From assembly GCA_937902605.1 (NCBI GenBank), contig CALFNC010000433.1, forward strand, positions 1 through 12,273: a stretch of 12,273 bases of DNA, in the 5' to 3' direction. The stretch is from an uncultured Acidobacteriota bacterium (GTDB taxonomy: Bacteria; Acidobacteriota; Thermoanaerobaculia; UBA5066). A program made the position numbers and the translations under genes. Of the stretch, positions 1 to 12,273 are shown piece after piece (within the stretch, counting starts at the first letter, position 1; every line of letters begins with the position of its first letter). A model generated the notes under the pieces. The model was not told the DNA's origin, did no database searches, and saw only the letters and a list, made by a program, of their open reading frames with translations.

Positions 1-855
1 GGTGTTCTCGTCCCGGACACCGCCCTATCGGCCTGGGTCTTGATGGCGCCCGGAACCGTCCTCGCCCCCCGGGAAACACGTCTCTACCCGGACTATTACC
101 TCGAGAAGAGGGCGAACGGGCAGATGCTCCTTCCCCGGGAGTTCAATGCCGCGAGCGATCCAGCGTTCTCACACATCCGCCTCAGCCTCGCTCTCCTGCA
201 GATGCAGCTCGGAGCCGGGAGCTCGCAGGCAAGGGAGGAACGTCTGGGGAATCCGCCCTGGCTCCGGTCTCATCCGGACATGGTCCGTCGCTTGACTGCT
301 TCCGCGTTTACGGCGAACGCAGCGTACTGGGTGCTCCGGGGTCCGTTCGGATGGCCTTTCCTCGGACGAGCCTCGATCGGAGCGCCGAAGCTCGACGAGA
401 CGTACAACCGAGCCTGGGCGGGCGCGCAGGCTGACCAGGTTCTCCGAAACGTCGACGTGGGCCGACCCGATCGGGCCGTCGCTCTCGCCGAGCGGCTCTT
501 CGAGCTCTCGCCCTCGGGCTACACGGCCGCGCTCCAGGCCGAGAGCCTCCGGGCCTCGGGACGGCTCGAGACGGCAGAGGCATTCCTTCGCTCCGTCCCG
601 CCTCCCTTTCACTCCTCCCCGAGCCTCGGCGTGGTGTCGGCGCTGATCGCGCGGGATCACGGAGACGAGAGGACTGCCCGGTCGATTCTAGAAGATGTCG
701 CCCGCGTATTCCCGAGACCCGCTCTCGTGGCAGCAGTAGCCCGCCCGCTCGCGGAGTGGCCTGCGAGCCTCCACCGGATGACGGGAGAGAACCTCGAGAC
801 GCGAGAGCTCTCCCTCCCAACACTCGGCTCCGGAGGCGCCAAGCCCGGCCGCTGA
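1..855 (+). CDS. C-terminal part of an unrecognised protein with TPR-like helices (5' truncated)
   Basis: The frame is open to the first base of the window (first codon GGT at 1) and ends at TGA 853-855, so this is probably the 3' part of a longer gene. An in-frame TTG at 40 is possible as a start but has no convincing ribosome binding site. Codon choice is strongly G/C-ending, as in the real genes downstream. I do not recognise the family. The second half is Ala/Leu/Arg-rich with helix pairs (for example around the words DRAVALAERLFELSP and RTARSILEDVARVFP) that resemble tetratricopeptide repeats. The first half is rich in Trp, Pro and aromatic residues and has no clear motif. No signal peptide or heme motif is visible. 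A strong hairpin lies 12 nt after the stop. It is probably not part of the electron-transfer operon, since a regulator and two gaps separate them. Confidence 0.6.
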   Translation, partial: GVLVPDTALSAWVLMAPGTVLAPRETRLYPDYYLEKRANGQMLLPREFNAASDPAFSHIRLSLALLQMQLGAGSSQAREERLGNPPWLRSHPDMVRRLTASAFTANAAYWVLRGPFGWPFLGRASIGAPKLDETYNRAWAGAQADQVLRNVDVGRPDRAVALAERLFELSPSGYTAALQAESLRASGRLETAEAFLRSVPPPFHSSPSLGVVSALIARDHGDERTARSILEDVARVFPRPALVAAVARPLAEWPASLHRMTGENLETRELSLPTLGSGGAKPGR

Positions 856-866
856 AGATCGTTGCC

Positions 867-903
867 CCTCTCGACCTCTCGCTCGACCGAGAGAGGTGAG
901 AGG
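867..903 (+). terminator. Strong stem-loop after the first gene, terminator-like
   Basis: Bases 867-872 (CCTCTC) pair with 898-903 (GAGAGG), and 874-880 (ACCTCTC) pair with 891-897 (GAGAGGT). Together they give a 13-bp stem with one bulged G at 873 and a 10-nt loop at 881-890. It begins 12 nt after the TGA at 853-855, where an intrinsic terminator would sit. There is no following T-run, so it may instead protect the mRNA 3' end, or belong to the leader of the regulator gene at 1074. Confidence 0.45.
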
Positions 904-1057
904 TGAGTACCGGCTCCCCAGGAAACGCTCGAGTCGACCTGCCGTGGCGCGGCGACACGACGCCGGGCGTGGCGACGTAGAATCGGTCGCAGAATGCACC
1001 CCGAGTCCGGCTGCGCTCCCGATGATCCCGCCTTGCCCGATCCGGAGGGAACGGCGC

Positions 1058-1063
1058 GAGGAG
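1058..1063 (+). promoter_or_regulatory. Ribosome binding site for the PAS-LuxR gene
   Basis: GAGGAG sits 10 nt upstream of GTG 1074. It supports the GTG start for a protein that begins just ahead of the PAS domain. Confidence 0.5.
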
Positions 1064-1073
1064 CGAGAGCTTT

Positions 1074-1748
1074 GTGAAACCGTCATTGCGCCCGCCACCG
1101 GAGCTGAGCCTGCTCTTCGAGGCTCTCAGACCCTCGCCGGACCCAGTCTTCGTTACGGATCGCCAGAACAGGATCGTCTTCTGGAACCTCAGCGCAGAGA
1201 GACTTCTGGGATACACCGCTGACGAAGTCGTCGGAGCTCCCTGTGCTGCCTCGCTGCAGGGGTGTGATAGCTACGGGAACCGGTACTGCGGCGAGGAATG
1301 TCCGATCACTCAGGCGGCGAAGCGGGGCGAGAGTGTCAGGCAATTCGGTCTCCGACTCCGCGCCCGGGACGGACATGTCCTTCTCATGGACATCAGCGTC
1401 CTCCAGTTTGCGGTCCACGCCCCCGAGACTTTCTACCTGGCCCATATCCTCAAGCCTTCCGTCGCTGCGATGCCCGCCGCACGGATCTCTGATGGGCCGA
1501 ACGAGCCACCACGCTCGGCGCTCGCGGCCGTCCGGGACTCCCCGGACGCGCGTGCGCGGAAGCTGACGAGCCGCGAGGTCGAGGTGCTCGGGATGCTCGC
1601 CGCGGGCCGCACGACGCCGGAGATCGCCGACCGGCTCCATATCTCCGCGCTGACCGCAAGGAATCACATCCAGAACATTCTCGACAAGCTCGAGCTCCAC
1701 TCCAAGGCCGAAGCGGTCGCGTTCGCGTTCCAGAAAGGGCTGATCTAG
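1074..1748 (+). CDS. PAS domain LuxR-family transcriptional regulator with a four-cysteine PAS insert
   Basis: This 224-residue protein is a one-component regulator. Residues about 15-130 form a PAS domain (PDPVFVTD, IVFWN, AERLLGY). Residues about 162-224 form a LuxR/GerE helix-turn-helix (LTSREVEVL, GRTTPEIADRLHIS, TARNHIQNILDKL, KAEAVAFA). The PAS domain carries Cys57, Cys64, Cys72 and Cys76 in a Cys-x6-Cys-x7-Cys-x3-Cys pattern; from memory, related PAS-HTH proteins share this arrangement. It could bind metal, an Fe-S cluster or form disulfides, which would suit a redox sensor. GTG 1074 is chosen because GAGGAG lies 10 nt upstream. There is no receiver domain, so it is not a classical response regulator. 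It ends 122 nt before the electron-transfer operon and points the same way, so control of that operon is a reasonable but untested inference. Confidence 0.88.
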   Translation: MKPSLRPPPELSLLFEALRPSPDPVFVTDRQNRIVFWNLSAERLLGYTADEVVGAPCAASLQGCDSYGNRYCGEECPITQAAKRGESVRQFGLRLRARDGHVLLMDISVLQFAVHAPETFYLAHILKPSVAAMPAARISDGPNEPPRSALAAVRDSPDARARKLTSREVEVLGMLAAGRTTPEIADRLHISALTARNHIQNILDKLELHSKAEAVAFAFQKGLI

Positions 1749-1870
1749 GGCCTTCCGTCCCGTCCCTGGTGCAAATTCACTAGACACAATGGTGCGCGTT
1801 GGGGATTGGGGATCACCCTGCCCGGGAGCACATTCCTTTCCACGTTGCCTACAATCGAAAGGAGTGCCCC
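1749..1870 (+). promoter_or_regulatory. Intergenic leader before the electron-transfer operon; probable promoter region
   Basis: This 122-nt gap is the only substantial non-coding stretch between the regulator and the end of the eight-gene operon, so the operon promoter or a regulator site most likely lies here unless transcription reads through from the regulator. No convincing -35/-10 or -24/-12 pair was found. Visible sequence features are the word TGGTGC at 1767-1772 and again at 1790-1795 (23 bp apart), and a tandem TTGGGGA at 1799-1805 and 1806-1812. Either could be an operator, but nothing proves it. Confidence 0.35.
1858..1864 (+). promoter_or_regulatory. Ribosome binding site fixing the GTG start of the cytochrome-porin
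   Basis: AAAGGAG lies 6 nt upstream of GTG 1871. It selects that codon over an in-frame upstream start at 1799, which would put 24 non-signal-like residues ahead of a normal signal peptide. Confidence 0.75.
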
Positions 1871-3271
1871 GTGAACGGATTCAAGCGAGGTACCACGACG
1901 CTCTTCCTCCTGCTGGGCGGCCTGGTCGTATTTCTGGGCGCCAGGCCGGCTGCCGCGGTCCCCGCCTTCTCGCGGAAATACCAGACGTCCTGCCAGACGT
2001 GCCATTCGATCTTTCCGAAGCTGAACCCGTTCGGCGAGGCCTTCCGCCTGAATGGATATCACCTCCCGGGCGAGACCGAAGAGCAGGTCAAGCAGAAGGC
2101 GGTGTCCCTCGGCGCGGACGCCTACGCCAGGATGTGGCCAGAGATGGTCTATCCGAGCAGTCTTCCCGGGAACGCCCCGTTTGCCCTGAACGTGAAGATG
2201 GCGAACATCTACGCGTCGAGCCACGACGACACGGGCAAGCAAATCGTCCACAACGACTTCCAGTTTCCGCAGGAGGCGAACCTCTTCGGCGCCGGGACGC
2301 TTGGAGACCACTTCAGCTTCTTCAGCGAGGTGACCTACGCCGAGAACCCGGACGGGAGCGGGTCGGTCGAGATCGAGCACGCCCGACTCGACGTCATTTC
2401 GGCATTCGGCCCCGAGCACCTCGTCAACTTCCGGATCGGCAAGTTTGCTCCGAACCTCTACGACGGGTTCCAGGAGATGTGGCTGATGACCGACAACGGT
2501 GTCGACACGCTCTTCGCCTACAACCCGATCGGATTCAATGGCGGAACGGGCCTGGCCGACAGCGGAGGCGGCGTCAGCCTTCCGGCGCGGACCCGGGCGA
2601 TCGAGATGTACGGTGTCGCCGCTCATCGCCTTTTCTACACGGTCGGCATCTCCGCCCCGATAGGCGCCGGCGGCCCGAACGGCCAGTTCAACAACAACAG
2701 CAGCAAAGACTTCTACGCCAGGGTCGACTACAAGTTCGGAGGCATGGGCCTGGACGGGGACTCGACGGGCGTCACGTTGCCCCCCGAGAACTGGCGGGAG
2801 ACCTCCTTCCGCGTTGGCCTCTTCGGCTACTTCGGCAACGGAACCGACGTCAACTACGCCATCACCGACCCTGCGGGGAATCCGTTCCAGATGCAGCAGA
2901 CGAGCTTCAGGCGTACCGGCGTCTATGGGTCGCTCTACGTCGGCGATCTGAACCTCATCGGAGTGGCGGTCCACGGGAGCGACGACCTCTCCCTGCGCGA
3001 CAACGACACGGGTGAGGAGCTGTCTAGCGCGACCCGGACCTATGACACCTTCTTCCTCCAGGCCGACTACGTGATCGTGCCCACCTTCCAGGTCTCGGCC
3101 CGCTACGAGAACCTGCGGCCCGCGGACCCCTCCGTGGACACCCAGAAGGCTTTCAACCTGAACCTCAGCGTCCTCGCGCGGGCCAACATCAAGCTGATGC
3201 TGGAGTATCACAGGGATCTTCACGATGCCCAGAACTACCAACTTGCCGCGGTCTTAAGGGCCGCGTTCTGA
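1871..3271 (+). CDS. Outer-membrane monoheme cytochrome c-beta-barrel fusion (Cyc2-like architecture)
   Basis: The 466-residue product starts at GTG 1871, set by AAAGGAG 6 nt upstream. Residues 4-29 form a Sec signal peptide: Lys/Arg, a Leu/Val-rich core, then ARPAAA and probable cleavage after Ala29. The mature chain begins with one c-type heme motif, Cys41-x2-Cys44-His45, in the context CQTCHSIFPKLNPFGEAFRLNGY. The remaining roughly 400 residues are Gly/Asn/aromatic-rich with alternating hydrophobic patterns and end in a C-terminal Phe, as outer-membrane beta-barrels do. A small heme domain followed by a porin-sized barrel is the layout of Cyc2, the iron-oxidising outer-membrane cytochrome, and the LN-x-FG-x-x-F-x-x-x-GY words after the heme also recall Cyc2. 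It would carry electrons across the outer membrane. It could instead belong to a related, uncharacterised cytochrome-porin family with another partner. It is the first gene of the operon, 13 nt before the cupredoxin gene. Confidence 0.8.
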   Translation: MNGFKRGTTTLFLLLGGLVVFLGARPAAAVPAFSRKYQTSCQTCHSIFPKLNPFGEAFRLNGYHLPGETEEQVKQKAVSLGADAYARMWPEMVYPSSLPGNAPFALNVKMANIYASSHDDTGKQIVHNDFQFPQEANLFGAGTLGDHFSFFSEVTYAENPDGSGSVEIEHARLDVISAFGPEHLVNFRIGKFAPNLYDGFQEMWLMTDNGVDTLFAYNPIGFNGGTGLADSGGGVSLPARTRAIEMYGVAAHRLFYTVGISAPIGAGGPNGQFNNNSSKDFYARVDYKFGGMGLDGDSTGVTLPPENWRETSFRVGLFGYFGNGTDVNYAITDPAGNPFQMQQTSFRRTGVYGSLYVGDLNLIGVAVHGSDDLSLRDNDTGEELSSATRTYDTFFLQADYVIVPTFQVSARYENLRPADPSVDTQKAFNLNLSVLARANIKLMLEYHRDLHDAQNYQLAAVLRAAF

Positions 3272-3284
3272 AGGAGGCAATACC

Positions 3285-3866
3285 ATGAAGGGAATACTCG
3301 TACTCGCCCTCTCCGCCGCCGTGGCCCTGCCGCTCGCGGCCGGGGACATTCACGGCAAGGTCACCTGCAAGGGGGTCCGCGACAGCGGCGATGCCGTGGT
3401 CTACGTCGGTGCGATCGCTGGCAAGACATTTCCCGCGCCGGCGCAGCACGCGAAGATCGACCAGAAGAACCTCGTCTTCTGGCCCCACGTCCTCCCCGTT
3501 CTCGTTGGGACGACCGTGGATTTCCTCAACAACGACGCCGTCCTCCATAACGTCTTCTCGCCCGATGGCTGTGCCGAGAAGTTCAACCTCGGGACCTGGC
3601 CGAAGGGGGAGATCCGAAGCTACACGTTCAAGAAGGAATGCGTGGCCGCCACTCTCCTCTGCAAGGTGCACCCCGAGATGGAGGCGTTCGTGGTGTCGGT
3701 CCCGACACCGTACTTCACCGTCACCAAGCCGGACGGCTCCTTCAAGATCGAAGGCGTTCCCGACGGCTCCTACACGGTCAAGGTCTGGCATCCGAAGCTC
3801 AAGCCCACGCAGAAAGCAGTGACCGTCGCCGGTTCCAGCGCGGCCGATTTCGAGATCGCCAAGTAG
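3285..3866 (+). CDS. Periplasmic cupredoxin with C-terminal carboxypeptidase-regulatory-like domain
   Basis: The 193-residue protein starts at ATG 3285 behind AAGGAGG (3270-3276), which overlaps the preceding stop codon. Residues 1-19 are a signal peptide ending ALPLAA. Residues about 60-140 form a plastocyanin-like fold with a full set of type 1 copper ligands: His88 (in VLHNVF) and Cys126, His129 and Met132 (in LLCKVHPEM). Residues about 143-192 look like a carboxypeptidase-regulatory/transthyretin-like beta-sandwich (YFTVTKPDGSFKIEGVPDG, YTVKVWHPKLK). Extra cysteines at 28, 96 and 119 could form a disulfide. The likely job is a soluble one-electron carrier between the outer-membrane cytochrome and the periplasmic hemes of the bc-type complex. 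Copper binding is well supported by the ligands; the partners are inferred from gene order. Its stop is 2 nt before the next start. Confidence 0.85.
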   Translation: MKGILVLALSAAVALPLAAGDIHGKVTCKGVRDSGDAVVYVGAIAGKTFPAPAQHAKIDQKNLVFWPHVLPVLVGTTVDFLNNDAVLHNVFSPDGCAEKFNLGTWPKGEIRSYTFKKECVAATLLCKVHPEMEAFVVSVPTPYFTVTKPDGSFKIEGVPDGSYTVKVWHPKLKPTQKAVTVAGSSAADFEIAK

Positions 3867-3868
3867 TC

Positions 3869-5734
3869 ATGGCCGACGTCAGCCACGAGTGGCTGGAACG
3901 GAACTTCCCCTGCAAGTGGGCGTGCCCGGTCCACACCGAGGCTGGCAAGTACGTCACGCTGGTAGCGGAGGGGCGGTACCGTGAGGCCTATGCCGTGGCG
4001 CGCCGGCCCAACCCGCTCGCGTCGATCTGCGGGAGGATCTGCGCGGCCCCTTGCGAGAGCGTCTGTCGCCGGGGTGAGCTGGATGCTCCGATCGCCATCC
4101 GCGCCATGAAGCGCTTCGTCACCGAGAGGTTCGGCGTGGAGAGCATGCTGGACCTCTCCGTTCTTTCCGAGATCTACGGTCATCGGACCAGACGGCATCC
4201 GGAGAAGGTCGCGGTGATCGGCTCCGGTCCCGCGGGCCTCGCCTGCGCACACGATCTGGCCCTCCTCGGGTATCCCGTGACCATTTTCGAAGCCGCTCCG
4301 GTTCCGGGCGGGATGCTCCGCCTCGGCGTCCCGGAATACCGGCTCCCCAGAGCGCTCATCCAGCTCGAGATCAACGCGATCCTTTCCCTGGGCGTCGAGC
4401 TGAGGGCGAACACCCGCCTCGGACCAGGCCTGACGCTCTCCGATCTCAAGGCCCAGGGCTTCGCCGCGATCTTCCTCGCCGTGGGCGCGATGCAGAGCCG
4501 GGACCTGGCCATCCCGGGCATGGACATGGACGGCGTCCTCAAAGGGATTGACTACCTTCTCAACGTCAACCTCGGCTACAAGGTCGAGATGGGACGCCGT
4601 GTCGTCGTCATCGGCGGCGGGAACGTCGCGCTCGACGTGGCGCGCACCGCCGCTCGGAGCGGCGAGGCCGCCAACCTCGAACGGAATCTCTCCGTCGTCC
4701 AGGCGCTCGACGTCGCCCGGAGCGCCGTCCGTTTCGGAGCCCGGGACGTTCTCGTCTGCTCCCTGGAGTCCGAGATCGAGATGCCGGCGTCCCGCGAGGA
4801 AGTCGACGAAGCTGAAAGGGAAGGGATCCGTTTCCAGCATCGCGTGGGCCCCAAGCGGCTCGTGGGCGAAAACGGCGTTGTCACCGGCGTCGAGCTCCTG
4901 ACGGCCTCGAGGGTCTTCGACGAGAACGGGCGCTTCGCCCCCCAGCTGGTCGAGGGGTCCGAGCGGGTCGTTCCGACGGACACCGTGATCGTCTCGATCG
5001 GGCAGACCGGCGACCTCTCGTTCCTGACGCCGGAAGACGGAGTCAGCAACCGTCAGGGCCGGATCGTCATCGACCCGGACACGCTCGCGACCACCGCACC
5101 GGGGATCTACGCTGGCGGAGACGCCGCCTTCGGACCTCGGATCGCCATCAACGCCGTGGCGGACGGGAAGAAGGCAGCCCTCTCGATCGACGAGCACCTC
5201 AGGGGACGCCCGCGCCTCTCGGAGGAGATCCTCGTCGAAATCGATGTCTCGCACCGCTATGAAAGGACGCTCGACTACGAGGGGATCCCGCGCCAGCAAC
5301 CGCCGACCCGCCCCCTGTCCCGCCGGATCGGGATCGCCGAGGTGGAGGAATGCTTCGGGGAACGCGAGGCCCGCCTCGAAGGGACCCGATGCCTCCACTG
5401 CTGGACCAACACCATTTTCGAAGAGAGTCCGGACGAGGGAACCGAATGCATCCTCTGCGGAGGCTGCCAGGACATCTGCCCGGAGGACTGTATCGAGATC
5501 CTTCCGTCGGCGGCGATCCGCCACCTCCCGGCTTCGGCCCGGGAGCTGGCGCCCATTCTGTGGGAAGGACGGCAGGAGGGCTCCATCTTCATCAAAGACG
5601 AGGAAACCTGCATCCGGTGCGGGCTCTGCGCGGCGCGGTGCCCCGCAGGGACCATCACAATGCAGAGCTTCCGGGCCGAGTCAAAGGAGGACCGTGGTGT
5701 CGAAAGTGTCGAAAGTGTCGAACGATCCGCGTGA
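3869..5734 (+). CDS. GltD/NfnB-like FAD-NAD(P) oxidoreductase with N- and C-terminal Fe-S modules
   Basis: This 621-residue protein has no signal peptide or membrane segment, so it is probably cytoplasmic. Residues 10-85 are a glutamate-synthase-small-subunit-type Fe-S domain: Cys15, Cys19, then Cys54, Cys58, Cys62, Cys66. An FAD site follows at about 113-142 (VAVIGSGPAGLACA) and an NAD(P) site at about 244-275 (VVVIGGGNVALDVA), with the second FAD motif (IYAGGDAAFGPR) near 412-425. The C-terminus adds Cys508-x2-Cys511 and two ferredoxin-type motifs, Cys527/530/533/537 and Cys581/584/587/591. No glutamate synthase large subunit is nearby, so true GltD is unlikely. Next to Rieske and cytochrome b it more likely links NAD(P)(H) to the quinone-reactive complex. 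A 12-residue word is repeated inside the NAD(P) domain (254-265 and 279-290). ATG 3869 has only a weak ribosome binding site but follows the previous stop by 2 nt, which suggests coupling. The 3' end overlaps the Rieske gene by 38 nt. Confidence 0.9.
   Translation: MADVSHEWLERNFPCKWACPVHTEAGKYVTLVAEGRYREAYAVARRPNPLASICGRICAAPCESVCRRGELDAPIAIRAMKRFVTERFGVESMLDLSVLSEIYGHRTRRHPEKVAVIGSGPAGLACAHDLALLGYPVTIFEAAPVPGGMLRLGVPEYRLPRALIQLEINAILSLGVELRANTRLGPGLTLSDLKAQGFAAIFLAVGAMQSRDLAIPGMDMDGVLKGIDYLLNVNLGYKVEMGRRVVVIGGGNVALDVARTAARSGEAANLERNLSVVQALDVARSAVRFGARDVLVCSLESEIEMPASREEVDEAEREGIRFQHRVGPKRLVGENGVVTGVELLTASRVFDENGRFAPQLVEGSERVVPTDTVIVSIGQTGDLSFLTPEDGVSNRQGRIVIDPDTLATTAPGIYAGGDAAFGPRIAINAVADGKKAALSIDEHLRGRPRLSEEILVEIDVSHRYERTLDYEGIPRQQPPTRPLSRRIGIAEVEECFGEREARLEGTRCLHCWTNTIFEESPDEGTECILCGGCQDICPEDCIEILPSAAIRHLPASARELAPILWEGRQEGSIFIKDEETCIRCGLCAARCPAGTITMQSFRAESKEDRGVESVESVERSA
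4628..4738. repeat. Internal 36-nt direct repeat within the NAD(P) domain
   Basis: Bases 4628-4663 and 4703-4738 both start GCGCTCGACGT and encode ALDVARTAARSG and ALDVARSAVRFG (9 of 12 residues identical), 25 residues apart. The first copy is the helix directly after the GGGN dinucleotide-binding loop. The second continues into the usual strand and the EMPAS word typical of NfnB/GltD proteins. Confidence 0.7.
5683..5690 (+). promoter_or_regulatory. Ribosome binding site of the Rieske gene, inside the upstream gene
   Basis: AAAGGAGG lies within the 3' end of the flavoprotein gene and 6 nt ahead of GTG 5697. It supports the 38-nt overlap and rules out the long N-terminal extension of the same frame. 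Confidence 0.75.
5697..5723. repeat. Three tandem 9-bp units at the Rieske start
   Basis: GTGTCGAAA at 5697-5705, GTGTCGAAA at 5706-5714 and GTGTCGAAC at 5715-5723. Each unit offers an in-frame GTG. In the Rieske frame it encodes (V/M)SK-VSK-VSN; in the flavoprotein frame it encodes the repetitive tail VES-VES-VER. Confidence 0.85.
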
Positions 5735-6206
5735 CGAGATCCGGAACGAGGACGACGACCCGAACCGGCGCCAGTTTCTGAGCCGCGTCGCCATGGGAGC
5801 CTGCGCCGCCGCGGCCGTCGGTTCGGGCGTCGTGACGCTCGACTTCCTCGAACCGAAGGTTCTCTTCGAGCCTCCGACCCGCTTCAAGGCGGGAAGCCCC
5901 CTCGATTACCCGGAAGGAACCGTCAAGTTCAACAAGGAACGCAGAGCGTACGTCGTCGGCGGTTCGAGCTGCGTTTATGCGCTCTCGGCAGTCTGCACCC
6001 ATCTCGGGTGCATCACGCGGTTCGTCCCGGACGAAAACGCCATCTCGTGCCCTTGCCACGGCAGCCGTTTCGACACGGAAGGGAACGTCACCCATGGCCC
6101 GGCGCCCCGCCCGCTGCCGTGGATCGAGATCGGCACCGACGAGAAGGGGGAGCTCGTCGTGGACACGGCGATCGTGATTCCTCATGGAAAGGTGTTTCGC
6201 GTATGA
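5697..6206 (+). CDS. Rieske [2Fe-2S] protein of a cytochrome bc/b6f-type complex, TAT-exported
   Basis: The 169-residue protein is the high-potential iron-sulfur subunit that takes the first electron from quinol at the Qo site. A twin-arginine signal is present (Arg24-Arg25-Gln-Phe-Leu, then an Ala/Gly/Val-rich helix to about residue 48) and probably stays as the membrane anchor. Cluster ligands are Cys100 and His102 in CTHLGC and Cys118 and His121 in CPCHGS; Cys105 and Cys120 should form the usual disulfide. The Ser of CPCHGS, which raises the redox potential, is kept. The usual Tyr two residues later is Phe (SRFD). GTG 5697 is selected by AAAGGAGG; GTG 5694, 5706 and 5715 are in-frame alternatives. 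Its TGA (6204-6206) overlaps the ATG of cytochrome b. Confidence 0.93.
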
Positions 6207-6973
6207 ATACGATCTCTCTCGCACCTCTGGAGCGATGGCTGCGCGGGACGGCGGTCTTCCGGTCGATCGTGCGCCACGGCGCCTCCGAGACGAACCGCAA
6301 CCGGTCGCTCATCGTCTTCGAGAACCTCTTCCTCCACGTCCATCCGGTCAAGGTCCGGGAGAAGACCCTCCGCTTCTCGCACACCTACTGGCTCGGAGGC
6401 GTCACCCTGGCGTGCGCCGTTCTCCTCGTGGCGACCGGCGTGCCGCTGATGTTCTACTACCACCCCTCGGTCCCGCAGGCGTACCGCGACATGAAGGAGC
6501 TCCAGTACGTCGTGGACAACGGTGTGTTCCTACGCAATCTGCACCGCTGGGCGGCGCACCTGATGGTCTTCACCGCGTTCCTTCACATGCTCCGGGTCTT
6601 CTACCACGGGGCGTTCCGGCCCCCGCGTCAGTTCAACTGGGTCATCGGCGTCGTCCTCCTCATCGTGACCCTCCTTCTCTCATACACCGGGTACCTCCTC
6701 CCTTGGGATCAGCTCGCCTTCTGGGGCGTGTCGGTCGGGACGAACATGGCCCGCGAGGCACCGGTGATCGGCGAGAAGATCCGGTTCCTTCTCCTGGGAG
6801 GGAACATGGTCTCGGAGAACGCGCTGCTCCGCTTCTACGTCCTGCACTGCGTGGTTCTTCCGGTCGGCCTTCTTGTCTTCCTCGCGGTCCACTTCTGGAG
6901 GATCCGGAAGGACGGGGGCGTCCAGGGACCTTCGGACGACGCTGCCGGTTCCATCGACGAGGCGGGATCATGA
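6203..6973 (+). CDS. Cytochrome b, b6-type N-terminal subunit of a Rieske/cytochrome b complex
   Basis: The 256-residue membrane protein carries both b hemes of a split (b6/IV) quinol oxidase. Four hydrophobic helices are visible, at about 62-84, 114-134, 147-167 and 209-232. Heme ligands are His114 and His128 (x13 spacing, in LHRWAAH...FLHMLRVF) and His215 and His230 (x14 spacing, as in b6-type rather than mitochondrial proteins). The words [11 protein letters not shown] and GYLLPWDQ are family-conserved. The N-terminal tail (about 60 residues) is longer than in cytochrome b6. The position of the Cys that covalently holds heme ci in b6f (just before LGG in the first helix) is Trp63 here, so covalent heme ci is probably absent. 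It overlaps its neighbours on both sides by ATGA. It is petB-like, but I do not assign the symbol. Confidence 0.93.
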
Positions 6974-7677
6974 GCACGCTCCCGCCGCTTACGGCCGTCG
7001 AGTCGAACGATCCGGTCGGGACTCCCCGGCGGATCGCCCTCGTCCGTCCCGACACGCGTCCCTCCGTGCGCCGGACGGAAGAACGTTACGTGATGACCTT
7101 TCCCCACCTGATCCTGCGGGAGGTGATCCTCTTCCAGGTCGTCGTGATCCTCCTGTCGCTCGCCGCTCTCGTCTTCAACGCCCCGCTGGAAGAGATGGCG
7201 AATCCCGTCGAGACTCCCAACCCCGCCAAGGCCCCGTGGTACTTCCTTGGCTTGCAGGAGCTCTTGCACTACTTTCCACCGGTCGTGGCGGGAGTTCTCC
7301 TGCCCGGTCTCGTCGTGGTGGCTCTGGTCGTCATTCCCTATGCCCGGGTCAACCTGACGGCGGGTCCGTTCTGGGAAGGGAAGGGACGCGGGACCTCCCT
7401 CACCGTCGCGGGGATCGCGGCCGCGCTCTTCCTCTTCCTCGCAGCGTTCCGCTGCTGGGCGATCGCCATCCCGACCCTCCTGGTCACGGCGGCCCTCTTC
7501 GCCGCGCGCGGGACTCAAGGACCCGGATTTCGTGGCGCCCTGTCGCGCCTCTCGCTCCCGCAGTGGATCATGACGTGGTTCGTCGTCGTGGCAACCGTCC
7601 TGACGGTCATCGGGACGTTCTTCCGGGGCCCGGGCTGGTCGTGGGTCTGGCCGTGGCTCTCGGTGACCCACCCATGA
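6970..7677 (+). CDS. Subunit IV-type C-terminal cytochrome b subunit
   Basis: The 235-residue protein supplies the remaining helices and the Qo-site loop of the split cytochrome b. Hydrophobic segments lie at about 48-70, 103-127, 140-175 and 195-215. The Qo signature region is [19 protein letters not shown], aligning with the PEWY loop, but the dipeptide before Trp-Tyr is Ala88-Pro89, so the usual acidic residue (PEWY or PDWY) is missing. The C-terminal FFRGPGW-x-WVWPW ending is rich in Trp. ATG 6970 overlaps the cytochrome b stop (ATGA). It is longer than plant or cyanobacterial subunit IV because of a roughly 45-residue N-terminal tail and an extra hydrophobic stretch. It is petD-like by position and sequence. 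Confidence 0.9.
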
Positions 7678-7700
7678 AGTCGGTGACACGTCCATGAAGA
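7661..7700. repeat. Imperfect 20-bp tandem duplication spanning the subunit IV / octaheme junction
   Basis: Bases 7661-7680 and 7681-7700 match at 16 of 20 positions (both begin CGGTGAC and contain CCATGAAG). Each copy holds an ATGA. The first ATG (7674) overlaps the subunit IV stop and opens a seven-codon frame whose TGA overlaps the second ATG (7694), the start of the octaheme cytochrome. Confidence 0.75.
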
Positions 7701-9718
7701 AAGACTCGCTTCGCCTCCGTCTGGTCTTTGCCATTACGAGCCTCCTCTTCCTGATCGTCCTGGCGATCTCGCCGGCGAAGAACTACTTTCGCGAGTACCG
7801 GTCTGTTCAGCGGGACTTCCGGTCGCTCGGGATGAGCCGTGCAAAGAGTCTGAAGGCCGCACAGGCCTACCAGAAGCGGCCCGTCGCCATCGAGCAGGTC
7901 TGGCTTCGGGACCTCGACAGGGTGGACCGGTGCACGACCTGCCACCTCGGCGTTGCGGACCCGGCGATGGCGGACGCTCCGGAGCCGCACCGCCTGCATC
8001 CGCGCACCGCGCACACACCGGGCGACCTCGAGCGGATGGGATGCACGTCGTGTCACGCGGGGGAGGGCCTGGCGACGGTGCGGCCCGAAGCCCATGGGAC
8101 CACCGCGGAGGCCGAATCTCCCATGATCCCGCTCGCCTACCTCGAGGCGGGCTGCGGACGCTGCCATACCTCGGAGAAGGTCTCCCAGGCATCGCTTCTC
8201 TCTCGCGGCCGTGCGCTGATGACGCGTGCCGGCTGTTATGCGTGTCACGCGGTCCGCAGCCACGAGCAGTTTCGGTCCGAGGCCCCTCCTCTGAACACGA
8301 TCAGCGTCAAGACCGGCGGGGAGTGGATCCACCGGTGGCTGAAGGACCCGAGTGCCGTCAATCCAAACGCGACGATGCCCAATTTTCACCTGGAGCCGAA
8401 GGAGATCGAGGAGCTGACCCACTACCTCTTCTCGCGGCCCGTCCCGCGGGACCTCGCCGCGGCGATCGAGAAGGCATCGGCCGAGCCCGCGGGCGACGCG
8501 GCCACAGGCAAGAAGATCTTCTCCGAATCGCGGTGCATCTCCTGTCATACCGTCGAAGGGAAGGGGAACGGCTCGGCGCCCGAGCTCTCGAAGGTGGCTT
8601 CCTCGGCGACGCCTGGCTGGCTCCTCGCCTTCCTGCGCGACCCACAGGCGTTCGATCCGGTGACCCGGATGCCCCGCTATCATTTCTCGGATCAGGAATC
8701 GCGCGATCTGGTCGCGTACGTCACGGCCGAGTTCCGCGATTTCGACGCGCCAAAGGAGATCCTCGAGCCCATACGGGTCAACCAGACGCTGGCCGAGAAC
8801 GGTAAGAAGGCCTTCTCGCGCCTCGGCTGCTTCTCGTGTCACGACCCTATCCAGGGCGAGGCGACCGAGAAGTTCGGACCCGAGCTCAACGGCATTGGCG
8901 AGAAGCGGGCGGCCTCGCTCGACTTCGGAAAGCGGACCGATCTGGCTCGTAACCCCCCGGCTTGGCTCGCGGCCAAGCTCGAGAATCCCCGTTCCTTCGC
9001 GGCGGGGCTCCGGATGCCGTCGTACGGGTTCAATGCCGATGACACCCACGCCATCGTCACCGCACTCCTTTCCCTTGGCTCTCAGCCGGTCCCCGAGGCC
9101 TACCGGCCCCCGCTCTCCGGCAGCCCCGCTCCGATCCCGGGCGGAGCCGTCGGCGCCCTGATCCAGCGTTATCGCTGTCTTTCCTGCCATCAGATTGGGA
9201 CCCAGGGTGGTGACATCTCGATGGCCCCGCTGACCCACGAGGGGAGCAAAGTCCAGCGCGACTGGCTCGTCGACTACCTCATGCTCTCCTTCACGATCCG
9301 GCCGATCCTCGAAGAACGGATGCCGGTCTTCCGCATTCCAAAGGACGAGGCCGTGCTTCTCGCGGACGCCATCGAGAGCTTCTACGTCGATCCCTCCATT
9401 CCCGAGGACCCGTTCGCTGGACGCCCCGAGCCGGACCGCAATCCCGTCGAGGGGCAGCGCCTCTATGTCACCCTCGGGTGCCGTGGCTGCCACATCGTCG
9501 GAGCGGGAGGCGGTTACTACGGACCCCCGCTCACCGACACGTCCACGCGCCTCAAGCCGGGCTGGATCTACGCCTGGTTGAAGGCCCCTCAACGCTGGCG
9601 CGCTGACGTTCGTTGTCCGAACTACGGTCTGTCCGACACGGATGCCCTTCGTCTGACCGCGTATCTCGGAACCCTTCATGGCGAGAAGGCCGGGGCCAAG
9701 GTGGGAGGCAAGAAGTGA
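7694..9718 (+). CDS. Membrane-anchored octaheme cytochrome c of the Rieske/cytochrome b complex
   Basis: The 674-residue protein has an uncleaved N-terminal membrane helix (about 8-26) and a large periplasmic part with eight CxxCH motifs at residues 80, 117, 154, 181, 281, 379, 495 and 596. The first three are exactly 37 residues apart and form a separate module, probably with His as second ligand. The last five look like repeated class I cytochrome c domains, each with a downstream ligand word: MPNF (Met228), MPRY (Met326), MPSY (Met441), MPVF (Met543) and, in the last one, CPNY with Cys641 in place of Met. No cytochrome c1 or f gene is present, so this protein probably takes electrons from the Rieske protein or passes them to or from it. 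ATG 7694 follows subunit IV by 16 nt within a tandem duplication. It overlaps the next gene by 4 nt. Confidence 0.9.
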   Translation: MKKDSLRLRLVFAITSLLFLIVLAISPAKNYFREYRSVQRDFRSLGMSRAKSLKAAQAYQKRPVAIEQVWLRDLDRVDRCTTCHLGVADPAMADAPEPHRLHPRTAHTPGDLERMGCTSCHAGEGLATVRPEAHGTTAEAESPMIPLAYLEAGCGRCHTSEKVSQASLLSRGRALMTRAGCYACHAVRSHEQFRSEAPPLNTISVKTGGEWIHRWLKDPSAVNPNATMPNFHLEPKEIEELTHYLFSRPVPRDLAAAIEKASAEPAGDAATGKKIFSESRCISCHTVEGKGNGSAPELSKVASSATPGWLLAFLRDPQAFDPVTRMPRYHFSDQESRDLVAYVTAEFRDFDAPKEILEPIRVNQTLAENGKKAFSRLGCFSCHDPIQGEATEKFGPELNGIGEKRAASLDFGKRTDLARNPPAWLAAKLENPRSFAAGLRMPSYGFNADDTHAIVTALLSLGSQPVPEAYRPPLSGSPAPIPGGAVGALIQRYRCLSCHQIGTQGGDISMAPLTHEGSKVQRDWLVDYLMLSFTIRPILEERMPVFRIPKDEAVLLADAIESFYVDPSIPEDPFAGRPEPDRNPVEGQRLYVTLGCRGCHIVGAGGGYYGPPLTDTSTRLKPGWIYAWLKAPQRWRADVRCPNYGLSDTDALRLTAYLGTLHGEKAGAKVGGKK

Positions 9719-10113
9719 AGCGAGCGTTCCTGGCAGTCCTTCCCCTGTTCCTGGTGGCCGCCTGCACGGGGAAACGAGCGGCGGCGCCCTCCAAGCCGGA
9801 GGCTTCCGCTCCACCGAGCTACGAGATACGGCTCGGGAAGGAGACGTTCAGGCTCTACTGTCAGACCTGCCACGGGGAGACGGGAGCCGGGGATGGGTTC
9901 AACGCATTCAATCTGGACCCGCATCCTCGTGACATCTCGGACACGGCGTTCCAGAAGAAGAAGAGCGACTCCGACCTCGCCGACGTCATCCGTCGGGGTG
10001 GTGCGGGAGCGGGCCTCTCCGCCCTGATGCCTCCCTGGGGACGGACCCTCTCGGAGGCGCAGATTAACGAGGTGATCCTCTACGTCAGAACGCTGAAGAA
10101 ACCGCCCGCCTGA
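9715..10113 (+). CDS. Monoheme class I cytochrome c lipoprotein
   Basis: The 132-residue protein starts at GTG 9715 (GTGA overlap with the previous stop), 6 nt after GGGAGG at 9703-9708. Residues 1-17 are a lipoprotein signal with lipobox LVAAC, so Cys17 should be lipidated. An Ala/Pro/Lys-rich linker to about residue 35 follows. The heme motif is Cys49-x2-Cys52-His53 (YCQTCHGETGAGDG) and the sixth ligand is probably Met105 in SALMPPWG, the standard class I pattern. The final helix is INEVILYVRTL. As a tethered carrier at the end of the operon it probably shuttles electrons between the octaheme subunit and another periplasmic partner, such as the cupredoxin. The partner is inferred. Confidence 0.9.
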   Translation: MKRAFLAVLPLFLVAACTGKRAAAPSKPEASAPPSYEIRLGKETFRLYCQTCHGETGAGDGFNAFNLDPHPRDISDTAFQKKKSDSDLADVIRRGGAGAGLSALMPPWGRTLSEAQINEVILYVRTLKKPPA

Positions 10114-10155: not shown

Positions 10156-12273
10156 TCAGCTTCGGACGATCGCCGCGATCCGATCGGCCGGAACGGCCGG
10201 GTTGAAGAAATGGCCCTGAGCGCTGTCGCAGGCATTCTCCCGGAGGAAGGCCACCTGCCGCTCGGTCTCCACGCCCTCGGCGACCACGTGAAGGCCGAGC
10301 TGACGGGCCAACGAGATGATGGTCAGGACGATCTCCCGCTGGGTCCGGTCGTCCGGCACGTTGCCGATGAAGCTGCGGTCGATCTTGAACGTGTCGATGG
10401 GGAAGCGCCGCAGATGGGAGAGCGACGAATAGCCCGTCCCGAAGTCGTCGATGGCCAGGCGGACCCCGAGACTCTTGAGGGCCGCGAGCCGGGCCTCCGC
10501 CTCCACCCCCTGCTCCATGATCGCGCTCTCCGTGATCTCCAGCTCCAGGTAACCCGCCTCGAGTCCCGTCTCGGCGAGAATCGCCTCGACCCGTAGCTCG
10601 AGATCCTGCTGAAGCAGCTGGCGGGGCGAGACGTTCACCGCCATCGTCCCGAACGGCAGCCCCGCATCGAGCCACGACCTCATCTGCCGGCAGGACCGGC
10701 GAAGGACTTCTTCACCGAGCGGGACGATGAGGCGGGTCTCTTCCGCGACGCCGATGAACGAGGATGGCATGACCAGGCCACGCTCCGGGCTCTGCCAGCG
10801 AAGAAGGGCCTCCACGCCCTCGATCCGGCCGTCGGCGAGGCGGACCACTGGCTGGTAGTGGAGGAGGAATTGATCGAGGGCGAGCCCTCGGCGCAGCTCG
10901 GATTCCAGCGCCAACCTCTCGTTGGCGGCCACCGTCAGAGCCTCGGAGTAGAAACGGAACGTGCTCCGTCCCCGCTCCTTCGCCTCGTACAGCGCCGCGT
11001 CGGCGTTCTGGATCAGGACCTCGGTGCGATCACCATCGGCCGGGAAGACGCTGATCCCGATGCTCAGCCCGACGTAGACCTCCCGGCCGTTGCCAAGGAG
11101 GAACGGGTGGCGGAACCGGTCGATGAGGTCGATCGCGACGGCCGCCGCCGCCTGCGGCCCGTCGATGTCCTCGAGGAGGACGATGAATTCGTCTCCGCCG
11201 AGCCTCGCGATCAGATCGCCGTCGCGGAGGCGCTCCCGCAGGAGCCGGGCAGTCGACTGGAGGATCTCGTCCCCCGCAGCATGGCCCAGGCTGTCGTTCA
11301 CGTTCTTGAACCGGTCCAGGTCGAGGAAGAGCACGGCGCCCGAACGACCGCTGCGCCGGCTGCGAGAGACGGCCTGGCCCAGGTACGAGGCGAGGAGGAG
11401 CCTATTCGGGAGGTCCGTCAGCGGGTCGTGCCGCGCGAGGTGCTCCAGCTTCTCTTCGGTCGCCTTGAGCGTGGAGATGTCGCTGAAGACGCCCACGTAT
11501 CCCGCGATGCGGGATCGCTCGCCCCGCACGACGCTGATCGAGAGCCACTCCGGGAAGATCGTTCCGTCCTTCCGGCGATTCCAGATCTCGCCCTGCCACT
11601 GGCCGGTCCGGACGAGCTCCTGCCACATCTCCTGGTAGAAGGCGTGGTCGTGCCGGCCAGACTGGAGGAATCGCATGTTCCGGCCGATCATCTCCGTGCG
11701 GTCGTAGCCCGTGATGGCCGCGAACGCTTCGTTGATCTCCTCGACCTCGCCCTTGTCGTTCGTGATGACGAACCCCTCGCGCGAGCTGGAGAACACGGCG
11801 GCCGCCCGCGTCAGCCTCTCCTCGTCCCGCTTCCGTTCAGTGATGTCCTGGATCGTCCCATACAGCCGGCGCGGCGAGCCGTCGGCCGCGTACTCGAGGA
11901 CCCCCAGGCCGTGGACCCAGCGTTCCTCCCCGTCCGACCGCCGAACGATCCGGTAATCCCTGTCGAATCGCGCATGCTCCGCTACGAGCCGCTGGAAGTA
12001 GGTCGCGATCTCTTCCCGTTGGGCTACGTCGACGAGCTCCAGCCAACCCTCGACGTTACGCACGTACGTCGCGTCGATCCCAAAGATGCCGTCGAGAACT
12101 TCTGAGCTGGACCACGCGTCCGACGGGAAGTCGTAGACGTAGCTCCCCATCCGTCCCAGCGCCTGTGCCTCCCGTAGTGCCCGCTCGCTCTCCCGGAGCG
12201 CCTCTTCCGCTCGTTTTCGTTCGGTGACGTCGCGGGTGACGCCCAGGAGCGCCCGGACGACCAGCGTCCCTGT
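10156..12273 (-). CDS. PAS-PAS-GGDEF-EAL cyclic-di-GMP regulatory protein (N-terminus outside the window)
   Basis: The minus-strand frame is open to the last base, and the 41 codons upstream of the internal ATG at 12150 encode GVTRDVTERKRAEEALRES, the typical end of another PAS/PAC unit. The gene therefore continues beyond 12273, and 705 residues are visible. In order: the end of one PAS, a PAS_3-like domain, a second full PAS, a GGDEF domain and an EAL domain. GGDEF is intact (11185-11199) with an inhibitory RxxD site (RDGD) five residues before it, so diguanylate cyclase activity is plausible. The EAL domain keeps EALLRW (EAL at 10804-10812), LEITES, IDDFGTGYS, FKIDRSFI and VVAEGVET, so phosphodiesterase activity is plausible too. 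It may do both, switched by the PAS ligands. Soluble in the visible part. It is convergent with the operon and not obviously linked to it. Confidence 0.92.
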   Translation of the reverse strand, partial: TGTLVVRALLGVTRDVTERKRAEEALRESERALREAQALGRMGSYVYDFPSDAWSSSEVLDGIFGIDATYVRNVEGWLELVDVAQREEIATYFQRLVAEHARFDRDYRIVRRSDGEERWVHGLGVLEYAADGSPRRLYGTIQDITERKRDEERLTRAAAVFSSSREGFVITNDKGEVEEINEAFAAITGYDRTEMIGRNMRFLQSGRHDHAFYQEMWQELVRTGQWQGEIWNRRKDGTIFPEWLSISVVRGERSRIAGYVGVFSDISTLKATEEKLEHLARHDPLTDLPNRLLLASYLGQAVSRSRRSGRSGAVLFLDLDRFKNVNDSLGHAAGDEILQSTARLLRERLRDGDLIARLGGDEFIVLLEDIDGPQAAAAVAIDLIDRFRHPFLLGNGREVYVGLSIGISVFPADGDRTEVLIQNADAALYEAKERGRSTFRFYSEALTVAANERLALESELRRGLALDQFLLHYQPVVRLADGRIEGVEALLRWQSPERGLVMPSSFIGVAEETRLIVPLGEEVLRRSCRQMRSWLDAGLPFGTMAVNVSPRQLLQQDLELRVEAILAETGLEAGYLELEITESAIMEQGVEAEARLAALKSLGVRLAIDDFGTGYSSLSHLRRFPIDTFKIDRSFIGNVPDDRTQREIVLTIISLARQLGLHVVAEGVETERQVAFLRENACDSAQGHFFNPAVPADRIAAIVRS

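What the first reader, a model, noticed from the sequence alone, without database searches (positions are those of the whole stretch)
1871..10113. Eight-gene operon that could join an outer-membrane heme conduit to a Rieske/b complex and an NAD(P) flavoprotein
Seen: one co-directional run, all junctions 16 nt or less or overlapping, encoding cytochrome-porin, cupredoxin, FAD/NAD(P)/Fe-S protein, Rieske, cytochrome b6, subunit IV, octaheme c and a lipoprotein cytochrome c. Known: Cyc2-type cytochrome-porins start Fe(II) oxidation, and neutral Fe(II) oxidisers need reverse electron flow through a bc complex to make NAD(P)H. Inference: this operon packages the outer-membrane entry, the periplasmic carriers, a quinone-reactive complex and an NAD(P) module together, so it might be a single extracellular-donor-to-NAD(P) pathway. 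Electron export in the opposite direction would use the same parts.
Basis: partly seen in the sequence, partly recalled or inferred. Interest (0 to 1): 0.8.

Follow-up and report, generated by a model that had tools for sequence, protein, structure and literature searches.

The report
Outer-membrane heme porin tied to NAD-linked respiratory complex
Some bacteria of the phylum Acidobacteriota, including several cultured Geothrix, keep together a block of genes for a heme-carrying outer-membrane pore, periplasmic electron carriers and an unusual membrane complex with an NAD-binding part, so the block probably exchanges electrons between the outside world and the cell's own energy carriers, in a direction not yet known.

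Summary
The eight genes are real and tightly packed (junctions -20 to +16 nt): a Cyc2-like monoheme cytochrome-porin, a cupredoxin, a GltD-like FAD/4Fe-4S NAD(P)-type flavoprotein, Rieske, cytochrome b6, a subunit IV predicted with five helices, an octaheme c and a lipoprotein cytochrome c. The unit, with a LuxR-PAS regulator, recurs in Acidobacteriota: in 17 of 17 informative loci whose cytochrome b is at least 74% identical to the window's, a cytochrome-porin precedes the cupredoxin, including Geothrix oryzisoli, G. terrae and G. campi. The inner-membrane part resembles the NAD(P)-linked Rieske/b complexes of anammox Kuenenia, whose two Rieske proteins are the closest in the PDB; but the heme c_N Cys is missing. 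More distant complexes often lack the porin, and one porin cluster lacks the flavoprotein. The autotrophic Fe(II)-to-NAD(P) reading is weakened: no RuBisCO or CdhC match in 19 of 19 operon genomes, presence in an Fe(III)-reducing genus, and thermodynamics under which NADH forms only while electrons flow outward. Best reading: a trans-envelope, probably bifurcating, menaquinol/NAD/extracellular module. New variant of a known kind; direction open.

The parts
1074..1748 (+). LuxR-type regulator with PAS domain; conserved neighbour of the operon
   Evidence: Pfam GerE and PAS; found next to the operon in 16 of 16 clade-A loci with enough sequence (14 upstream, 2 downstream; in L065 it is split over two frames)
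1871..3271 (+). Cyc2-like monoheme cytochrome-porin (GTG start); CxxCH at residue 41
   Evidence: AVPAFSRKY..CQTCH..PKL; AlphaFold2 barrel, mean pLDDT 72.5, with the heme region mostly below 50; Foldseek matches to 16-strand porins incl. OprP and OprO
3285..3866 (+). periplasmic cupredoxin with a carboxypeptidase-regulatory-like domain; His..Cys-x2-His-x2-Met ligand pattern
   Evidence: Pfam; ligand pattern conserved in the alignment
3869..5734 (+). cytoplasmic GltD-like flavoprotein: Fer4_20 domain, FAD and NAD(P) domains, two C-terminal ferredoxin-type [4Fe-4S] motifs
   Evidence: Glu in place of the second Arg of the RR found in GltD/Nfn relatives, 39 of 39 rows
5715..6206 (+). Rieske protein with twin-arginine-type signal (start uncertain)
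   Evidence: Pfam PF00355; best solved relatives 9rk4 and 9rk3
6203..6973 (+). b6-type cytochrome b; conserved His pairs 114/128 and 215/230; Trp63 where b6 has the heme c_N Cys
6970..7677 (+). subunit IV, five long helices predicted, Qp motif KAPWY
7694..9718 (+). membrane-anchored octaheme cytochrome c (8 CxxCH)
   Evidence: N-terminal hydrophobic stretch read from the sequence
9715..10113 (+). lipoprotein monoheme cytochrome c
   Evidence: VAAC lipobox read from the sequence

Best explanation
A conserved trans-envelope respiratory module. Shown from sequence: an inner-membrane Rieske/cytochrome b6/subunit IV complex with an octaheme c and an FAD/4Fe-4S NAD(P)-type subunit, encoded with a cupredoxin, a lipoprotein cytochrome c and an outer-membrane-type cytochrome-porin. 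Inferred: menaquinol is oxidised at the Qp site. One electron goes Rieske -> octaheme c -> cytochrome c/cupredoxin -> porin heme -> an extracellular acceptor. The other goes through the b hemes and Fe-S clusters to FAD and NAD+. With E0' of -70 mV (menaquinone) and -320 mV (NAD(P)) from PMC12954380, this is downhill only if the outward acceptor lies above about +180 mV (more against a membrane potential). Below that the same parts would run backwards and consume NADH. My odds: architecture 0.85; porin functionally coupled to the complex 0.8; NAD really coupled 0.65; net outward, bifurcating use 0.45.
For: Conserved order and slot in 17 of 17 informative clade-A loci and porin plus cupredoxin in 8 of 10 next-closest loci. 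In a sample of 199 Acidobacteriota genomes, 14 of 21 porin matches lie within 4.3 kb of a same-strand cytochrome b. Within one genus the slot holds either of two porin types while the other genes stay (G010 type A, G002 type B). The best PDB matches of the Rieske are the two anammox ones, 9rk4 (Kuste4569) E 2.9e-24 and 9rk3 (Kustd1480) E 6.6e-20, against 2.4e-16 for the next. They belong to complexes with the same kinds of subunit, for which NAD(P)H generation by bifurcation is proposed (PMC12954380: abstract, introduction, section 3.3, discussion and passages read). That paper's structural match for the Kuenenia flavoprotein, 9bp5, shares its chain sequence with 9bov, the second-best PDB match of the window's flavoprotein. 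Five-helix SUIV. No RuBisCO or CdhC match. Present in Geothrix, described as an electrogen (PMC12285243, passages).
Against: No biochemistry. The Cyc2 proteins whose activity is described in the passages of PMC8406198 that I read are Fe(II) oxidases, which favours import; PMC11748539 (passage) suggests that Holophaga and Geothrix may take up ferrous iron. Only 9 of 47 Geothrix genomes carry the clade-A cytochrome b, so it is not needed by the genus at large. Fe(II)/Fe(III) at neutral pH, 0 +/- 100 mV (PMC8406198, passage), is below the +180 mV tipping point, so ordinary iron oxides would not support NADH formation this way. In the 199-genome sample 74 genomes have a cytochrome b at E <= 1e-60 but only 19 a porin match, so the complex family is far wider than the pairing. 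Heme c_N, present in the anammox models, cannot be bound the same way here. L086 pairs the porin with a complex without flavoprotein, and L094 has porin and cupredoxin without the complex.
Confidence: 0.45

Rival explanations
1. Electron uptake with confurcation: Fe(II) or another extracellular donor feeds the porin, cupredoxin and octaheme c; the complex runs backwards, joining these electrons with NADH electrons to reduce menaquinone.
For: The porin is Cyc2-like, and the Cyc2 studied in PMC8406198 oxidises Fe(II). Neutral Fe(II) potential lies below the tipping point. All 19 operon genomes searched encode a heme-copper oxidase, so oxygen-linked lithoheterotrophy is possible. PMC11748539 (passage) speculates that Geothrix and Holophaga take up ferrous iron.
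Against: No obvious gain over sending Fe(II) electrons to an oxidase directly (inference). Heme-copper oxidases occur in 47 of 47 Geothrix genomes, with or without the operon, so they do not discriminate.
Confidence: 0.25
2. One reading: extracellular donor electrons pushed uphill through the complex to NAD(P)+ for biosynthesis.
For: All the parts are there; reverse flow through a bc complex is established in acidophilic Fe(II) oxidisers (recalled).
Against: RuBisCO and CdhC gave no match in 19 of 19 operon genomes (other CO2-fixation routes were not tested). A single pass from about +100 mV to -320 mV is too steep for one charge crossing, and reversal of a bifurcating complex uses NADH (inference).
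Confidence: 0.1
3. A loose assembly: the porin-cupredoxin pair and the NAD-linked Rieske/b complex are separate functions that share one redox regulon.
For: Each half occurs without the other: L094 (pair alone), L081 and, as far as its contig reaches, L080 (complex alone), and 6 of 8 sufficiently long loci below 58% cytochrome b identity.
Against: Strict co-linearity in 17 of 17 clade-A loci, with flanks that look different from locus to locus (by eye), and replacement of one cytochrome-porin type by another in the same slot.
Confidence: 0.15
4. The flavoprotein gives NADH electrons to the b hemes, making an NADH:menaquinone or NADH:extracellular-acceptor oxidoreductase without bifurcation.
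For: The same cofactor chain is reversible, and heterotrophs have NADH in plenty (inference); Glu in place of Arg at the cofactor-binding motif suggests NAD(H) rather than NADP(H) (inference).
Against: It would waste energy that an NADH dehydrogenase can conserve; the anammox authors call refilling the quinol pool from NAD(P)H unlikely on this ground (PMC12954380, discussion).
Confidence: 0.05

Closest known systems
NAD(P)-linked Rieske/cytochrome b complexes of anammox Kuenenia stuttgartiensis (Kustd1480-1485, Kuste4569-4574)
   Same: b6-type cytochrome b, five-helix SUIV, multiheme c in place of cytochrome f, FAD/4Fe-4S NAD(P)-type subunit related to Nfn proteins, Rieske with Ser in the cluster loop (Phe at the Tyr position, as in 9rk3/Kustd1480); closest Rieske proteins in the PDB
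   Different: No Cys for heme c_N (Trp63 instead); a cupredoxin and a lipoprotein c beside the octaheme c; tied to an outer-membrane-type cytochrome-porin, where Kuste4569-4574 has an HAO-like octaheme protein
Cyc2 fused cytochrome-porin (Fe(II) oxidase family)
   Same: Single N-terminal CxxCH, AxPxF(A/S)RKY and PxL motifs, predicted 16-strand barrel matching general porins incl. OprO/OprP
   Different: One motif position differs in the window (Ser for Ala); activity unknown; embedded in a Rieske/b operon; cluster assignment not tested
Selenite/tellurite-reduction operon cytochromes ExtP/ExtQ/ExtS (NCBIfam)
   Same: Among NCBIfam models cytochrome b is closest to ExtP and SUIV to ExtQ
   Different: Both below the curated cut-offs (275.6 of 290 bits for ExtP; 55.2 of 150 for ExtQ)
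Canonical cytochrome b6f and bc1 complexes
   Same: Rieske plus diheme cytochrome b core with the standard His pairs
   Different: No cytochrome f or c1, Qp motif KAPWY instead of PEWY (recalled), no c_N Cys (b6f), extra NAD(P)-type subunit

Membership tests
Anammox-type NAD(P)-linked Rieske/b complex | Split b6-type cytochrome b with two His pairs | tested here: met
   Pfam Cytochrome_B and Cytochrom_B_C; H114, H128, H215 and H230 among the invariant columns of A1; that these are the heme ligands is by analogy, recalled
Anammox-type NAD(P)-linked Rieske/b complex | Subunit IV with five transmembrane helices | tested here: met
   AlphaFold2: five long helices 43-68, 104-128, 140-159, 163-178, 196-217; modest confidence, mean pLDDT 60
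Anammox-type NAD(P)-linked Rieske/b complex | Hexa- or octaheme c in place of cytochrome f | tested here: met
   8 CxxCH in 7694-9718
Anammox-type NAD(P)-linked Rieske/b complex | FAD/Fe-S NAD(P) oxidoreductase subunit | tested here: met
   Pyr_redox_2, Fer4_20, Fer4_7; cluster Cys ligands conserved; NAD(P) binding itself not testable
Anammox-type NAD(P)-linked Rieske/b complex | High-potential Rieske (> +300 mV) | not testable with these tools
   Only the sequence correlate: CPCHGSRF, with Ser present and Phe at the Tyr position as in 9rk3/Kustd1480
Anammox-type NAD(P)-linked Rieske/b complex | Heme c_N (covalent Cys in cytochrome b) | tested here: not met
   Trp at the position in the window and the 20 other clade-A cytochromes b; a Cys in only one of the 49 cytochromes b tabulated, L042
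Anammox-type NAD(P)-linked Rieske/b complex | Extra interface b heme (His and Arg/Lys) | tested here: inconclusive
   His45 and R235-K236 conserved in A1, but spacing 190 against 204 from the residue numbers in PMC12954380; no Kuenenia cytochrome b sequence was held for alignment
Cyc2 | AXPXFAR[Q/K][T/Y] upstream of CXXCH | tested here: inconclusive
   Window AVPAFSRKY: 6 of 7 fixed positions; several relatives (e.g. L092, L093) have the FARKY form (motif definition)
Cyc2 | PXL 4 residues downstream of CXXCH; single CXXCH; over 365 aa | tested here: met
   CQTCH-SIF-PKL, one CxxCH, 466 aa
Cyc2 | 16-strand porin resembling OprO/OprP | tested here: met
   AlphaFold2, 16 strands of 7 or more residues; Foldseek 2o4v E 2.6e-12 (rank 2), 4rjw E 1.4e-10 (rank 16), TM-scores about 0.5; other 16-strand porins match equally well
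Cyc2 | Fe(II) oxidase activity | not testable with these tools
Canonical cytochrome b6f/bc1 complex | Cytochrome f or c1 subunit and no NAD(P) subunit | tested here: not met
   Octaheme c and flavoprotein instead

The most novel reading that the evidence does not exclude
An electron-bifurcating Rieske/b complex that splits menaquinol electrons between NAD+ and an extracellular acceptor through a dedicated Cyc2-like cytochrome-porin: extracellular respiration that conserves energy directly as NADH, with a redox tipping point near +180 mV below which it runs in reverse.
Probability: 0.3. Interest if true: 0.88.

Novelty: new variant of a known kind. Interest (0 to 1): 0.62.

Why it matters
The role of NAD(P)-linked Rieske/b complexes is an open question in anammox bacteria (PMC12954380). 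Here the same kind of complex sits in an operon with its own likely route to the outside, in named, cultured Geothrix strains, which makes the bifurcation proposal testable in isolates. It also warns against calling Fe(II) oxidation from Cyc2-like genes alone, because this porin is genetically tied to a complex that could equally export electrons.

Tried and rejected
Chance or assembly artefact: rejected, since the order is the same in isolate scaffolds of G. oryzisoli, G. campi and G. terrae. Autotrophy: PF00016 and PF03598 gave no match in 19 of 19 genomes, with the controls ringing in 5 and 2 of 14; the reductive TCA cycle and other routes were not tested. Oxidase content as a sign of direction: uninformative, 19 of 19 operon genomes and 47 of 47 Geothrix genomes. 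Solved relatives of the porin by sequence: none meaningful. Rfam on the window: nothing. Promoter scan: 1 found against 0.8 in shuffles. Flanking genes for functional hints: looked at by eye in eight loci, no shared partner seen except a topoisomerase-like ORF in two Geothrix loci; no family search was run on them. A direct alignment with Kuenenia cytochrome b, SUIV and flavoprotein was not possible, as no locus of it was fetched. Occurrence outside Acidobacteriota was not tested beyond the narrow two-pattern scan, whose 18 loci all bear names of Acidobacteriota groups (Acidobacteria/Acidobacteriota, Thermoanaerobaculia, Holophagaceae, Geothrix). In print? Searches listed no paper whose title or abstract start describes this operon; cluster-3 Cyc2 in an Acidobacteriota MAG is in print (PMC9671151, passages).
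Full report
OBSERVATION. The eight ORFs are as described and tightly packed. The cupredoxin stop and the flavoprotein start are 2 nt apart and no + strand terminator-like site falls at a junction, so separate transcription of 1871-3866 and 3869-10113 is unlikely but untested. Read directly from the sequence: the flavoprotein has no signal-like N-terminus; the cupredoxin and porin begin with signal-like stretches, the Rieske carries an RR motif, and the last gene has a VAAC lipobox.

CONSERVATION. Cytochrome b relatives at 80-85% identity were found in 8 of the 59 other genomes. A scan of genome contigs with their alignment A1 gave 18 loci, all named as Acidobacteriota groups, among them Geothrix oryzisoli SG189, G. 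campi SG10 and G. terrae SG184; eight of the 18 are the same contigs as L031-L038 and are counted once. Adding L092 and L093 and the window gives 21 'clade A' loci (cytochrome b 74-100% identical to the window). Four contigs end before the porin slot (L051, L052, L059, L066). In the other 17 of 17 a cytochrome-porin stands directly before the cupredoxin: 14 like the window's (one, L055, cut by the contig end) and 3 of a second type, FARQTG..CxxCH (L056, L060, L064). The two types are homologous (hhalign probability 98.6, E 1.4e-15). Both types occur in the same slot in genomes of one genus (G010 type A, G002 type B). The LuxR-PAS regulator adjoins in 16 of 16 informative loci, 14 upstream and 2 downstream (in L065 it is split over two frames). 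In eight loci inspected by eye the flanks look different, apart from two Geothrix loci that share a topoisomerase-like neighbour, so the unit appears to be regulator plus eight genes.

FURTHER OUT. At 58-70% cytochrome b identity, 8 of 10 loci have a cytochrome-porin and cupredoxin (L082 and L083 with the type-B porin after the lipoprotein cytochrome c); L081 has neither, and L080 has neither in the 4.3 kb held upstream; all ten have the flavoprotein. Below 58%, of 16 loci taken without regard to the porin, eight hold less than 4.5 kb upstream of cytochrome b; of the other eight, two (L096, L098) have a cytochrome-porin, without a cupredoxin. L086 and L091 were taken because of a porin match: both have porin and cupredoxin, but L086 lacks the flavoprotein. 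L094 has porin and cupredoxin with no complex. In a phylum sample of 199 genomes, 19 genomes gave 21 porin matches at E <= 1e-20; 14 of 21 lie within 4.3 kb of a same-strand cytochrome b, and at least one of the other 7 (G022:C12) ends at a contig edge. In the same sample 74 genomes have a cytochrome b at E <= 1e-60, so most complexes of the wider family have no window-type porin in the genome at that threshold. In Geothrix, 9 of 47 genomes carry the clade-A cytochrome b (genus identified because contig coordinates of G167, G191 and G227 equal those of L057, L062 and L058). The operon is thus a patchy accessory unit.

WHAT THE PARTS ARE. Porin: no Pfam, NCBIfam or meaningful PDB sequence match. 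It fits the Cyc2 definition of Keffer et al. (PMC8406198, passages read) except for Ser in place of Ala at one motif position; AlphaFold2 gives 16 strands of 7 or more residues (mean pLDDT 72.5, heme region mostly under 50), and Foldseek ranks OprP 2o4v second and OprO 4rjw sixteenth among many 16-strand porins with TM-scores near 0.5; OprO and OprP are the porins that paper names for Cyc2. Cupredoxin: His..Cys-x2-His-x2-Met pattern conserved. Flavoprotein: Fer4_20, FAD and NAD(P) domains, two C-terminal ferredoxin motifs; with two clusters in the Fer4_20 domain, as in GltD and dihydropyrimidine dehydrogenase (recalled), that makes four, the number modelled in Kuenenia. Its two best solved relatives are the NfnA-like chain 9n5u and 9bov/9bp5; 9bp5 is also the match named for the Kuenenia flavoprotein. 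In 39 of 39 rows a Glu stands where GltD/Nfn proteins have the second Arg of RR, which I take to mean NAD(H) rather than NADP(H) (inference). Rieske: the two best PDB matches are 9rk4 (E 2.9e-24) and 9rk3 (6.6e-20), deposited as Kuste4569 and Kustd1480; a b6f Rieske follows at 2.4e-16. Cytochrome b: Trp63 replaces the heme c_N Cys in all 21 clade-A sequences; only L042 of the 49 tabulated has Cys. Subunit IV: KAPWY in 48 of 48 rows and five long helices (modest confidence).

MECHANISM. PMC12954380 (abstract, introduction, section 3.3, discussion and passages read) describes Kuenenia complexes with these kinds of subunit and the proposal that menaquinol bifurcates one electron to a high-potential acceptor and one to NAD(P). 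With that paper's -70 mV and -320 mV, the outward acceptor must exceed about +180 mV, or about +330 mV if one charge is moved against 150 mV. Fe(II)/Fe(III) at pH 7 is given as 0 +/- 100 mV in PMC8406198. So with mineral iron the coupled reaction would run towards NADH consumption; with Mn(IV), chelated Fe(III) or another strong oxidant (potentials recalled) it would make NADH. This argues against a one-pass donor-to-NAD(P) pathway and leaves two live readings: outward bifurcation (my first choice, 0.45) and uptake with confurcation (0.25). The lack of c_N fits a weakened quinone-reduction site but does not prove it, since bc1 complexes lack c_N too (recalled).

METABOLIC CONTEXT. RuBisCO and CdhC: no match in 19 of 19 operon genomes each; completeness is told for 9 of the 19, and 7 of those are at least 90% complete. 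Heme-copper oxidase: 19 of 19 and 47 of 47 Geothrix. PMC12285243 (passages) calls Geothrix an electrogen and its Table 1 lists 0 'oxiEET' genes for that genus; PMC11748539 (passages) speculates that Holophaga and Geothrix take up ferrous iron; PMC9671151 (passages) reports a cluster-3 Cyc2 in a MAG classed as Thermoanaerobaculum aquaticum, described there as an iron reducer. Cyc2-like genes in this phylum are therefore known; the operon with the NAD-linked complex was not seen in the titles and abstract starts listed by searches, which is weak evidence of novelty.

VERDICT. Real, conserved, and a new variant that joins two known kinds. Function and direction are inferred, not shown.

Noticed in passing
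window 1074-1748: The LuxR-PAS regulator has a Cys-rich PAS stretch (C..NR(Y/F)C...C) kept in 17 of 18 homologues found in the loci (the 18th, L065, is broken), so it may sense redox state or bind a metal.
   Followed up: partly
L032/L060, L037/L064, L038/L056: A second Cyc2-like porin type (FARQTG..CxxCH) fills the porin slot in place of the window's type, even within one genus.
   Followed up: yes
L046 (G000:C312) 244-3220: The window's genome holds another Rieske/b/multiheme-c cluster (cytochrome b 48-50% identical), cut at the contig start where a flavoprotein gene could lie.
   Followed up: partly
L094 1478-3659: A window-type porin and cupredoxin pair with none of the membrane complex beside it.
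   Followed up: no
L086 4226-12006: Porin, cupredoxin, Rieske, cytochrome b, SUIV and cytochromes c without the flavoprotein.
   Followed up: partly
L096 13671-15197, L098 13122-14669: A third kind of FARKY cytochrome-porin (..NKTGYxFKRLGYRMP) upstream of flavoprotein-Rieske/b clusters, without a cupredoxin.
   Followed up: no
window 10156-12273 (-): Convergent PAS-GGDEF-EAL protein next to the operon end; relatives were not searched for.
   Followed up: no
L042 5263-10717: A cytochrome b that keeps the c_N Cys, with a Rieske whose loop reads much like 9rk3; possibly a true Kuenenia-type complex in Acidobacteriota.
   Followed up: no
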